In this document: piece by piece, positions 1,591-3,993 of the stretch
Position numbering within the stretch: position 1 is the stretch's first letter
Layout: each line of letters opens with the position of its first letter
From: Rhizobium sp. Q54
Lineage (GTDB): Bacteria; Pseudomonadota; Alphaproteobacteria; Micropepsales; Micropepsaceae
Length of the DNA: 43,673 nt
Assembly (NCBI GenBank): GCA_945860165.1
Contig: CAMAPL010000019.1
Location: forward strand, 1-43,673
Direction of reading: 5' to 3'
Translations under genes and position numbers: made by a program
The notes under the pieces: model-generated
The model's database searches: none
Seen by the model: the letters and a program-made list of their open reading frames with translations, nothing else
Told to the model about the DNA's origin: nothing

Positions 1591-2859
1591 TTACCAAGCC
1601 TGAGCAGCCAGCACGTCCTCCAGCTTCGTCGTGAACTGCCGTGACAGACGCCGACTACGTGCAGACCATGGGCGGGCAATGCCTATAGCCAGCGGTGAGA
1701 TGGTGTTCCTGCCGTAGCGGGCGTTGATCGCGTCCATCGCGGGCATCAGAAGCTTTGATTGGCTATCCGACAGACTGAAGAATAGCTGCTTGGGGCGTTC
1801 AACAGCTGGCTCTAGATTGCTCAACATCACGCCTGCCTTCGCGTAGCGGTAACCGTCGCGCCATACAGGCTTCAGCATCCGCACGGCTTGTGTGATCAAT
1901 ACCATCGTGTCGTTGGTTGGCTCGATCTGGGCAGCCTTCTGACCGCTGTGCCATGGCTCACCCTTAGCATGAGGGTTGGTATGCAAGAACACTGCGATAT
2001 GCCCGGCCTGTAAGCCCTGCTGCCGTAGCTTCTCGGCGGCTCTGGTTGCGTAGGTGGCAATGGCCTCCCGCATTTCATGCCACGCTGTGATGGGCCGCCC
2101 GAAAGACCGCGTACAGGCAATGCTCTTGCGGTCGGCGGGAGCGTCTACGAACGGCAAGCATGATACGCCCCGCAGTTCCGCTTGTGTGCGCTCACCAACC
2201 ACGGTCAGAAGGCCGCGCACTTCAGGCACAGGGGCATCAATGAAGTCTTGGATGGTTCTGTAACCGGCCTTCTCCAGCTTCGTGGCGCTCTTGCTGCCTA
2301 TGCCCCAGACTTCTCCAACTGGCAGGGCTGCATAGTAGCTGTCGCGTATGGCTGGATCAGTGAGATCACATACGCCGCCAAGATCGGGATTGTCCTTAGC
2401 TATGCCATTAGCCAGTTTGGCGATGGTCTTGGTCGGCCCCCAGCCAATGCAGGTCGGGATTTTGGCAATACGCCGGACGTCATCTCGTAGGGACCGGCAC
2501 CGCTCGGTCAGATCACCCGGTAAGCCGGTCAGGTCTAAGAACATCTCGTCGATGCTGTACGGCTCGACCCTAGGAACCCGTTCAGCCAGCACTTGGTACA
2601 TCCTACGGCTCATGTCCCCGTACAGTGCGTAGTTGCTGCTGAACCACTCCACGGCTGCCAGTTCAGGGCGCTTGCGGATCAGGTGCCACGGATCACCCAT
2701 CTTGATGCCAAGGGCCTTAGCCTCCGTTGTGCGGGCAATTGCGCAGCCATCATTGTTGCTCAGGACCACTACAGGCAGCAGCCGCAGGCGTGGCTGGAAC
2801 ACCCGCTCGCATGAGCAATAGAAGGAATTGGCATCTATGAGGCCGTAGACGGGCTTCAT
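1591..2859 (-). CDS. umuC: UmuC, Y-family DNA polymerase V catalytic subunit
   Basis: A 422-residue, full-length UmuC, the translesion polymerase that copies damaged DNA in complex with processed UmuD. The N-terminus carries the palm motif [16 protein letters not shown], with the metal-binding Asp of DANS and the Tyr steric gate region. [13 protein letters not shown] holds the second acidic pair (S-I-D-E), and [16 protein letters not shown] matches the fingers/thumb junction. A helix-hairpin segment ([16 protein letters not shown]) and the little-finger region (SRSFG-like CTRSFGRPI) follow in order. It starts 2 bases after the umuD stop and is evidently co-transcribed and SOS-controlled. The catalytic residues look intact, unlike those of its partner. 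Confidence 0.95.
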
Positions 2860-2861
2860 GG

Positions 2862-3251
2862 TTAGACGTCCGTGCGTACAAGGCCAGACACGGTCGCCCA
2901 GACTTCGACATCATCGCCCACACAGACAGCCGGACTACTGCGGGATGGCTGTAGCCACCATTGGGCCTCTTTGTAGGCGAGTTCGCACACCACAACGTCA
3001 CCATGGACCATCGCCACGACAACGCGTCCGGGCATAGGCGGTGCAGCAGCGTCCGCGATCAGGATGTCGCCATGCCTGATACCGCGCTGGTTCAGGGCGT
3101 CTCCGCGAACCCTGACCGGGTAGCGGCTGGGGCTACGCAGATCGAGAACCGCCGAAAGGTCTATGCTGCCTTCGAGGCTATCGCCTGCTGGTGACGCGAA
3201 GCCCGTTGTATTCCCGCCGTTATATTCGCCTCCAGACACCCTTGACCCCAT
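2862..3251 (-). CDS. umuD: UmuD-like protein lacking the Ser-Lys catalytic dyad
   Basis: 129 residues, aligning along its length with UmuD (S24 family). The cleavage-site region ([10 protein letters not shown]) corresponds to the Cys24-Gly25 site of E. coli UmuD (CGFPSPAAD). The S24 core VRVRGDAL...[11 protein letters not shown] is present, but the catalytic Ser60 position (GDSM in UmuD) is Ala52 (GDAL). The general-base Lys97 position (TVKKL) is Cys89 (VVCEL). By family knowledge it therefore should not self-cleave. The ATG at 3251 is chosen because the SOS box lies immediately upstream; no good ribosome site is visible, so the mRNA may have a very short leader. It is followed after 2 bases by umuC. 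Whether it acts uncleaved, or another protease or LexA-type protein cleaves it, is open. Confidence 0.85.
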
Positions 3252-3264
3252 ACGAAAGGGATGG

Positions 3265-3279
3265 GAACATATAGAGAAC
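3265..3279 (-). promoter_or_regulatory. SOS (LexA) box of umuDC
   Basis: GAAC-ATATAGA-GAAC (GTTC-N7-GTTC on the gene strand) exactly matches the alphaproteobacterial LexA operator. It ends 13 bases before the umuD start codon. A TTGCTA/TATATG promoter-like pair overlaps it. Confidence 0.85.
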
Positions 3280-3408
3280 ATAAATTCTAGCAAGTCCGAA
3301 TATGCTGGGCTTTGCCCCACCGACCGCCACAGGCTCTACGGACCCCGCAGGCATCGGCAGAATTACATGCCGTGATCCGGTTCCCAAGCATGCGCGTATT
3401 ACACAGGG

Positions 3409-3819: not shown

Positions 3820-3904
3820 GCCGGCAAAGCCGGTGTTCAAGCCAACACTACACGCCAAGCCCTTCGCCCGTCCGCTTCTACCTTCAGGGCCATGCCCCGG
3901 ATAA

Positions 3905-3993
3905 ATCATCGACCATGTGATCGCCCTGAAGCGCGGCGGGTCGGATACCCCGGCCAACATGCAATGGCAGACAGTTGAAGAAGCTAAGGCGAA
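3905..3993 (+). pseudogene. HNH-endonuclease-like fragment cut by an IS end
   Basis: The frame encodes IDHVIALKRGGSDTPANMQW followed by QTVEEAKA. This is the D-H-x-I-x-L-x-x-G-G...N-M-Q-W-Q-T signature seen at the C-terminus of small HNH nucleases. A TAA sits directly upstream (3902-3904) and there is no start codon. At 3994 the similarity ends exactly where an IS terminus begins, so the gene was broken by insertion. Confidence is high for the remnant and moderate for the HNH label. Confidence 0.65.

What the first reader, a model, noticed from the sequence alone, without database searches (positions are those of the whole stretch)
2862..3279. SOS-controlled UmuD without Ser-Lys dyad, paired with an intact UmuC
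The protein aligns along its length with UmuD, including the cleavage-site region (TGFASPAGD). The catalytic Ser (GDSM) is Ala (GDAL), and the Lys of TVKKL is Cys (VVCEL). The gene has a textbook alphaproteobacterial SOS box and a full UmuC with its catalytic residues. UmuD normally must self-cleave to activate polymerase V, so this pair must work differently: uncleaved UmuD active, cleavage in trans by another S24 protein, or a permanent inhibitor. Both dyad positions being changed while the rest of the fold and the operon are kept suggests selection for a non-cleaving form.
Basis: partly seen in the sequence, partly recalled or inferred. Interest (0 to 1): 0.72.

Follow-up and report, generated by a model that had tools for sequence, protein, structure and literature searches.

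The report
UmuD born short and catalytically dead
This bacterial gene pair makes an error-prone DNA-copying enzyme whose partner protein, which normally must cut itself to switch the enzyme on, has lost its cutting site and is probably made nearly pre-cut, so damage-induced mutation would be controlled at the gene's switch alone.

Summary
The protein (minus strand 2862-3281) is UmuD-like; the catalytic Ser and Lys are Ala and Cys, with an SOS box in front and intact umuC behind. It is neither sequencing error nor decay: dN/dS is 0.04-0.09 and the type occurs patchily in Acetobacteraceae genomes, plasmids and viral contigs. In 61 distinct relatives the Lys is never present, the Ser in 4, and Thr (60) or Ser (1) stands before the old cleavage site. 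The conserved starts leave 16 or 12 residues before the cleavage-site Gly; relatives mostly 9-16 (some up to 22), against 24 in E. coli. The arm that self-cleavage removes is largely missing, so cleavage may be unnecessary. Best reading: a 'born-active' UmuD'-like manager with its own UmuC, controlled by LexA, in the manner of phage P1 HumD. Of 200 Acetobacteraceae genomes, 9 carry the dead type, 7 the classical, none both. The short arm carries a conserved Y-x-G-x-x-T-T-G-F motif of unknown function. Activity is inferred, not shown.

The parts
3265..3279 (-). SOS box (LexA operator) GTTCTCTATATGTTC
   Evidence: conserved in L005 and L014; same box type upstream of the genes read as lexA (L001) and recA (L226) of this genome
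2862..3251 (-). umuD-like gene, most likely reading from the conserved ATG 3251 (or GTG 3239): dyad-less, short-arm UmuD; Ala for Ser60, Cys for Lys97 (E. coli numbers), Thr before the old cleavage-site Gly
3204..3224 (-). residual arm and former cleavage site, Y-N-G-G-N-T-T before the Gly at 3201-3203; motif Y-x-G-x-x-T-T-G-F
   Evidence: Y 59 of 61, G 60 of 61, first T 61 of 61, second T 60 of 61
1591..2859 (-). umuC, full-length Y-family polymerase of 422 aa with catalytic Asp9, Asp103, Glu104
1592..3301 (-). unit shared with another genome of the genus (L029): SOS box, umuD and umuC, 92% identical over 1710 bp, starting at the umuC stop and ending 22 bases upstream of the SOS box

Best explanation
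A 'born-active' polymerase V manager. LexA cleavage after DNA damage releases the SOS promoter; the operon then makes UmuC with a UmuD that already lacks most of the N-terminal arm and cannot cut itself. It dimerises through the kept S24 core, as UmuD' does, and supports UmuC at once. Control is thus one lock (LexA) instead of two (LexA plus RecA-driven UmuD self-cleavage). Shown: dyad loss, short arm in most members, SOS box, intact UmuC, purifying selection, UmuD' fold in a predicted model. Inferred: dimerisation, UmuC binding, activity without cleavage. RecA may still be needed to activate the polymerase, as for E. coli pol V (recalled).
For: Full dyad absent in 61 of 61 distinct relatives, the Lys always. 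Short arm: the SOS box ends 46-65 bases before the Gly codon in 46 of the 47 genes with a box within 150 nt, and the starts after it give 9-16 residues (L070 also 17 or 19); annotated starts of nine dead-type plasmid genes give 9-13 residues in seven, 21 (L021) and 44 (L015) in two, against 25-30 in three dyad-intact alphaproteobacterial ones. In 200 Acetobacteraceae genomes, 9 of 9 dead-type proteins have TTGF without dyad and 7 of 7 classical ones [AC]GF with dyad, no genome both. Dyad and Ala/Cys in 60 of 60 high-scoring UmuDs (chosen by score). No classical UmuD over cut-off in 30 of 30 genomes with the dead type. UmuC catalytic residues in 65 of 67 rows, duplicates included. dN/dS 0.04-0.09 for umuD, 0.064 for umuC. 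Model core pLDDT mostly about 90, arm under 50; matches UmuD' 1ay9 at Z 14.7. E. coli UmuD 18 is not cleaved, resembles UmuD' in replicase binding and gives low but detectable mutagenesis (PMC5342242). P1 HumD is a natural short UmuD (PMC7092418 passage; sequence).
Against: Arm length does not separate the types cleanly: in 6 of 61 dead-type genes the nearest ATG/GTG gives 18-22 residues, and 2 of 60 classical dyad-bearing genes have no ATG/GTG giving more than 15 (L156, L165). UmuD 18 mimics UmuD' only partly: its mutagenesis was reduced, and the dead type keeps at least 2 more residues than its 7. UmuD 8 S60A (17 native arm residues, dyad dead) gave greatly reduced mutagenesis and sensitised cells to UV when over-expressed; in the window, ATG 3251 would give 16 residues, GTG 3239 gives 12. 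The residual arm is strongly conserved, which a plain leftover would not need. No expression, binding or mutagenesis data were found for any member.
Confidence: 0.65

Rival explanations
1. Standing inhibitor or checkpoint form: the uncleavable protein keeps UmuC in the UmuD2C-like state that blocks mutagenesis and slows replication.
For: E. coli UmuD S60A and UmuD 8 S60A reduce UV mutagenesis and sensitise cells to UV (review PMC3901139 passage; PMC5342242). If ATG 3251 is the start, the arm (16) is nearly that of UmuD 8 (17); six relatives have nearest starts at 18-22.
Against: Most relatives have their nearest start at 9-13 residues before the Gly (51 of 61). No classical UmuD over cut-off accompanies it in 30 of 30 genomes, so UmuC would lack an activator, yet its active site is kept in 65 of 67 rows.
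Confidence: 0.15
2. Cleavage in trans: another S24 protein such as LexA cuts it at T-T/G-F to give UmuD'.
For: G000 holds a gene that I read as an intact LexA; E. coli UmuD S60A can be cut in trans by UmuD 18 in heterodimers (PMC5342242).
Against: Thr (60 of 61) or Ser (1 of 61) instead of Ala/Cys at the cut. UmuD 18, with a working active site and 7 native arm residues, is not cut. No classical UmuD partner over cut-off in 30 of 30 genomes.
Confidence: 0.06
3. Changed role: the protein no longer serves UmuC as UmuD' but is, for example, a scaffold that tethers UmuC to another partner through the conserved Y-x-G-x-x-T-T-G-F peptide.
For: The residual arm is strongly conserved; the fold and the umuC neighbour are kept.
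Against: No partner identified; the operon layout is the ordinary umuDC one.
Confidence: 0.1
4. Decay or artefact: a pseudogene or sequencing errors at both codons.
For: Broken or partial copies do occur among relatives (such as L006, L020, L025, L073, L074, L076), so the module is dispensable.
Against: Same state in independent genomes and plasmids; dN/dS 0.04-0.09.
Confidence: 0.02

Closest known systems
HumD of phage P1 and gp26 of phage N15 (HumD family, NF051876)
   Same: UmuD-like protein without the removable arm; P1 humD is annotated with a LexA site and described in print as an already activated, shorter UmuD (PMC7092418 passage).
   Different: HumD and gp26 start one residue before the Gly; P1 has no umuC in the 1.35 kb read. 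In my reading of the letters HumD keeps a Ser and the Lys (ADSH, RIKR), and N15 gp26 has Thr for the Ser and keeps the Lys (ATHY, RIKR). The window protein scores 29.6 bits against a cut-off of 120 for that model, so it is not a member.
E. coli UmuD/UmuD' with UmuC (DNA polymerase V); MucA, SamA (recalled)
   Same: S24 core, umuDC gene order, LexA-type box, full UmuC with DUF4113.
   Different: No Ser-Lys dyad, Thr before the old cut, arm 12 or 16 residues in the window instead of 24.
E. coli laboratory variants UmuD 18 and UmuD 8 S60A (PMC5342242; abstract, passages, section 14)
   Same: Shortened arm, not cleaved; nature appears to have made a similar construct.
   Different: The natural family has a conserved arm motif, and most of its arms lie between the two in length.
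UmuDAb of Acinetobacter (titles and abstract beginnings in the listing; N-terminal extension from a passage of PMC3901139)
   Same: A UmuD relative with a changed role.
   Different: UmuDAb has an extended N-terminus and represses genes; the window protein is shortened.

Membership tests
UmuD (pol V autoproteolytic subunit, NF007621) | S24 core homologous to UmuD' | tested here: met
   but 67.5 bits against the curated cut-off of 110
UmuD (pol V autoproteolytic subunit, NF007621) | Ser-Lys catalytic dyad | tested here: not met
   Ala and Cys; Lys in 0 of 61 and Ser in 4 of 61 distinct relatives
UmuD (pol V autoproteolytic subunit, NF007621) | cleavable N-terminal arm of about 24 residues with Ala/Cys-Gly cut site | tested here: not met
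   Thr-Gly; arm 12 or 16 residues in the window; nearest start 9-16 in 55 and 18-22 in 6 of 61 relatives. Arm length rests on start-codon choice.
UmuD (pol V autoproteolytic subunit, NF007621) | operon with umuC under LexA control | tested here: met
   umuC match starts 3 bases after the umuD stop in the window and close behind umuD in most relatives; exact SOS box within 150 nt in 47 of 61 and 414-874 nt upstream in 11 more. LexA binding itself not tested.
HumD family (NF051876) | model score over cut-off (120 bits) | tested here: not met
   29.6 bits; four other members 23.5-40.6
HumD family (NF051876) | works as UmuD' without cleavage | not testable with these tools
   needs complementation of a umuDC-deleted strain
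UmuC (pol V catalytic subunit) | Y-family domains, catalytic Asp/Asp-Glu, DUF4113 | tested here: met
   385 bits against the NF002955 cut-off of 431, so a divergent member

The most novel reading that the evidence does not exclude
The short arm is not a leftover but a rebuilt docking peptide: Y-x-G-x-x-T-T-G-F recruits a partner (UmuC, the sliding clamp or RecA) and replaces the arm's old switch function. The same TTGFASPA start with a dead or deleted dyad arose more than once, also in UmuC-carrying viral contigs, so 'single-lock' polymerase V may be a recurrent evolutionary outcome.
Probability: 0.25. Interest if true: 0.75.

Novelty: new variant of a known kind. Interest (0 to 1): 0.58.

Why it matters
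UmuD self-cleavage is taken as the step that delays mutagenic repair in E. coli. Here is a natural, selected umuDC lineage, found in plasmids, predicted viral contigs and large genome contigs of acetic acid bacteria, Acidiphilium/Acidocella and Roseomonas types, that seems to lack that step. It offers a ready natural test of what the delay is for: compare mutation rate and survival in related hosts carrying the single-lock or the classical two-lock version, which both occur in one bacterial family and were not found together in the 200 genomes looked at. It also suggests that the name 'S24 family peptidase', given to this gene in 9 of the 11 plasmid records opened, is wrong as to activity.

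Tried and rejected
Sequencing error and pseudogene: rejected. Realignment to another Ser/Lys: rejected; I had no residue-level superposition, only the fold match, so the dyad positions rest on sequence alignment. Claim that the dead type is universal in Acetobacteraceae: rejected, 9 of 200 genomes (where at most 21 candidates per genome were scored, so a lower bound). Claim that arm length alone separates dead from classical: rejected; odds of the best reading lowered from 0.68 to 0.65, and those of the inhibitor rival raised from 0.13 to 0.15, for this. Claim of several independent losses (two viral groups, L103-L105/L122 and L106-L121/L123-L131, also lack the dyad): the best tree of 41 rows needs 3 changes, but one common origin is not rejected (p-AU 0.095); these loci were found by patterns that include TTGF[AV]SPA, so their Thr may be by selection of the search. 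The claim that Thr goes with a dead dyad everywhere fails: L008 of the same genus has TTGF with Ser and Lys kept. tRNA in the window as an integration site: none found. Phage collection search with P0001: 3 unannotated matches. Taxon of the host beyond Alphaproteobacteria (title of L029, the record of G063): not determined. Papers: ten searches listed nothing that I recognised as describing a dyad-less umuDC lineage; most listed papers were not opened, and the library lacks most subscription journals, so this is no proof of novelty. PMC5101192 ('naturally truncated') used that phrase for Ssb, not UmuD. Passages of PMC11541004 (umuCD homologues in plasmid leading regions), PMC3765255 (SRAP beside umuCD) and PMC1839093 (no umuCD in Caulobacter) were seen and do not bear on the dyad. 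A PHROGs scan gave only 'UmuD-like protein'.

Rows dropped: from the 61-protein count I left out fragments or broken copies (L006, L020, L025, L049, L073, L074, L076-L079, L081, L084, L085, L102), duplicates (L003, L004 and identical proteins), the dyad-intact L007, L008, L026-L028 and the distant L080, L082, L083. The UmuC tree used 92 of the 144 rows aligned. The classical set (60 loci, the best 30 each) was chosen by high score to NF007621. One search covered the genomes of 30 of the 57 loci.

Full report
What is there. The minus strand of the window carries, in order, an SOS box (3279-3265), a UmuD-like gene ending at 2862 and umuC (2859-1591). The UmuD-like protein matches Peptidase_S24 (E 2.2e-10) and, below its cut-off, the UmuD model NF007621 (67.5 bits against 110). 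Against E. coli UmuD and UmuD' the alignment has no gap near either catalytic position: Ser60 is Ala (GDAL) and Lys97 is Cys (VVCEL). UmuC passes the Pfam cut-offs of the IMS, IMS_C and DUF4113 domains and keeps Asp9, Asp103 and Glu104.

The ATG at 3281 lies across the SOS box and is absent in the two nearest complete relatives, L005 and L014, which keep the box, the later ATG and the GTG. A start after the box leaves 16 (ATG 3251) or 12 (GTG 3239) residues before the Gly that follows the cleavage site in E. coli, where UmuD has 24. In the Acidiphilium plasmid gene L018 a GGAGG stands just ahead of an ATG that gives 10 residues. Over 61 distinct full-length relatives, 47 have the exact box within 150 nt; it ends 46-65 bases before the Gly codon in 46 of these (107 in L075), and the starts that follow it give 9-16 residues, with 17 and 19 also possible in L070. 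In L026 and L027, dyad-intact alphaproteobacterial relatives, the box ends 81-82 bases before that codon. Annotated starts agree with a difference: of nine dead-type plasmid genes seven give 9-13 residues, L021 21 and L015 44; three dyad-intact ones give 25-30. Of the 14 genes without a near box, 11 have an exact box 414-874 nt upstream; L036 and L042 do not (L042 has one with a mismatch nearby; L036 has only 210 nt upstream) and L091 was not scanned further for lack of upstream sequence. Background is 0.02 boxes per 150 nt on one strand, about 0.2 per 1500 nt, so one far box is weaker evidence.

Limits of the arm argument. Starts are chosen, not measured. In 6 of the 61 genes the nearest ATG or GTG gives 18-22 residues. 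Of 60 classical, dyad-bearing genes, 2 (L156, L165) have no ATG or GTG that gives more than 15 residues, and in others a nearer start also exists. So a short arm is typical of the dead type, not unique to it.

The family. Plasmid, genome and viral-contig searches gave relatives in Acetobacter, Gluconobacter, Komagataeibacter, Acidiphilium, Acidocella, Roseomonas/Pseudoroseomonas, Lichenicola, Swingsia and Neokomagataea, among others. In the 61 distinct proteins the residue before the Gly is Thr in 60 and Ser in 1; the Ser position is Ala 38, Thr 16, Ser 4, Gly 2, Pro 1; the Lys position is Ala 36, Cys 18, Gly 7. No protein keeps both. No alignment column has Lys in 30% or more of the 61. So no substitute dyad is in sight.

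A less selected comparison. Of 200 genomes drawn evenly from the family of Gluconobacter kondonii (L050, handle G836), 7 hold a classical UmuD over the cut-off and 9 hold the dead type (a lower bound, since at most 21 candidates per genome were scored). No genome was found with both. Reading the loci, 9 of 9 dead-type proteins have TTGF and no dyad, and 7 of 7 classical ones have [AC]GF and a dyad; two pairs of the classical ones are near copies. In the genomes of 30 loci known to carry the dead type, none has a classical UmuD over the cut-off. In the window's own genome the three S24 matches are this gene, one that I read as LexA, and a C5 gene with an in-frame stop and a repressor-like reading; the Y-family matches are umuC and one on C8, perhaps dinB (not tested), so no ImuB-like match beyond these.

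Selection and descent. Among the window gene and three near relatives the umuD dN/dS is 0.04-0.09, and for umuC (one pair) 0.064; six pairs of other relatives give 0.02-0.13 for umuD. On a UmuC tree of 92 rows the 45 partners of dead UmuDs form one group (SH-aLRT 100) beside UmuCs of three dyad-intact alphaproteobacterial plasmids (99) (quick tree, midpoint root, with warnings about long branches elsewhere). The loss is therefore most simply one old event in this lineage. The unit moves: 1710 bp from the umuC stop to 22 bases upstream of the SOS box is 92% identical to L029, while the flanks match only in short pieces, and only 3 of 96 genomes of the window's family hold a complete near copy, one of them in another genus.

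Structure. The AlphaFold2 model (51 sequences) has mean pLDDT 78, a core mostly near 90 and an arm under 50. The best solved matches are the lambda repressor C-terminal domain and UmuD' 1ay9, both Z 14.7. I did not obtain a residue-level superposition.

How it most likely works. In E. coli, UmuD must lose its first 24 residues to switch UmuC on (review PMC3901139, passages). Murison et al. (PMC5342242; abstract, passages and section 14) shortened the arm: UmuD 18, with 7 native residues left, is not cleaved, resembles UmuD' in binding to the replicase, and gives reduced but detectable mutagenesis; UmuD 8 with a dead dyad, 17 residues left, gives greatly reduced mutagenesis and sensitises cells to UV when over-expressed. 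(The abstract and the section disagree on whether UmuD 18 confers UV resistance.) Most arms of the natural family lie between the two. P1 HumD is described as an already activated shorter UmuD (PMC7092418 passage), and its sequence starts one residue before the Gly. I therefore read the window pair as a single-lock polymerase V: LexA alone decides, and the UmuD works uncut. What is inferred: dimerisation, UmuC binding, and activity. RecA may still be needed for the polymerase itself (recalled).

What does not fit. The residual arm is conserved as Y-x-G-x-x-T-T-G-F (Y 59, G 60, T 61, T 60 of 61). A mere remnant should drift. It may dock UmuC, the clamp or RecA. Viral relatives with UmuC nearby and a dead or deleted dyad also begin near TTGFASPA, but they were found by patterns that include it, and a single origin is not rejected (p-AU 0.095). 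L008, of the window's genus, has TTGF with the dyad intact, so Thr alone does not mark the dead type.

Comparison and novelty. By model score the protein is neither a standard UmuD nor a HumD. It works like HumD if my reading is right, but it has its own UmuC, has lost the dyad, and has an arm motif of its own. Ten paper searches listed nothing that I recognised as describing such a lineage; the library is partial. I rate it a new variant of a known kind.

Noticed in passing
window 3881-3993; L029 5193-5305; L081 547-654 and 355-413: The same stretch of about 110 bases, which in my reading is the end of an HNH endonuclease-like gene, lies upstream of umuD in the window and downstream of umuC in L029: a possible mark of the mobile unit.
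   Followed up: partly
L029 1233-2318: A tyrosine recombinase-like gene (my reading of the translation) stands upstream of the nearest relative of the umuDC unit.
   Followed up: no
L106-L121, L123-L131: Viral contigs, up to 321 kb, carry UmuD-like proteins with the catalytic Ser region shortened and a TTGFASPA start; 16 of these loci stand in the UmuC tree with a UmuC of at least 330 residues.
   Followed up: partly
L103, L104, L105, L122: Another viral group has UmuD with a possible start only 5-6 residues before the Gly and Cys near the Lys position (LCRL; my alignment by script and by eye), with UmuC close by.
   Followed up: partly
L015 112-831, L016 3292-3966, L017 and L018 3231-3941: An annotated SOS response-associated peptidase (SRAP) gene is divergent to the umuD gene in three plasmids (L017 and L018 nearly the same island) and further off in L015, where Pfam confirms SRAP. 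SRAP beside umuCD is a known context (PMC3765255 passage).
   Followed up: partly
L021, L040, L041, L044, L046, L047, L055, L066, L086, L101: In these loci, mostly Roseomonas-type, the SOS box lies 414-744 nt upstream of the Gly codon; in L021 and L040 short ORFs of unknown function lie between it and umuD.
   Followed up: partly
L002 (G000 C5): A gene with a repressor-like reading in the same genome has an in-frame TAG inside the S24 match.
   Followed up: no
L030: A copy 98% identical in protein sits in a MAG labelled Acidobacteriia on a 3.3 kb contig; perhaps binning contamination.
   Followed up: no
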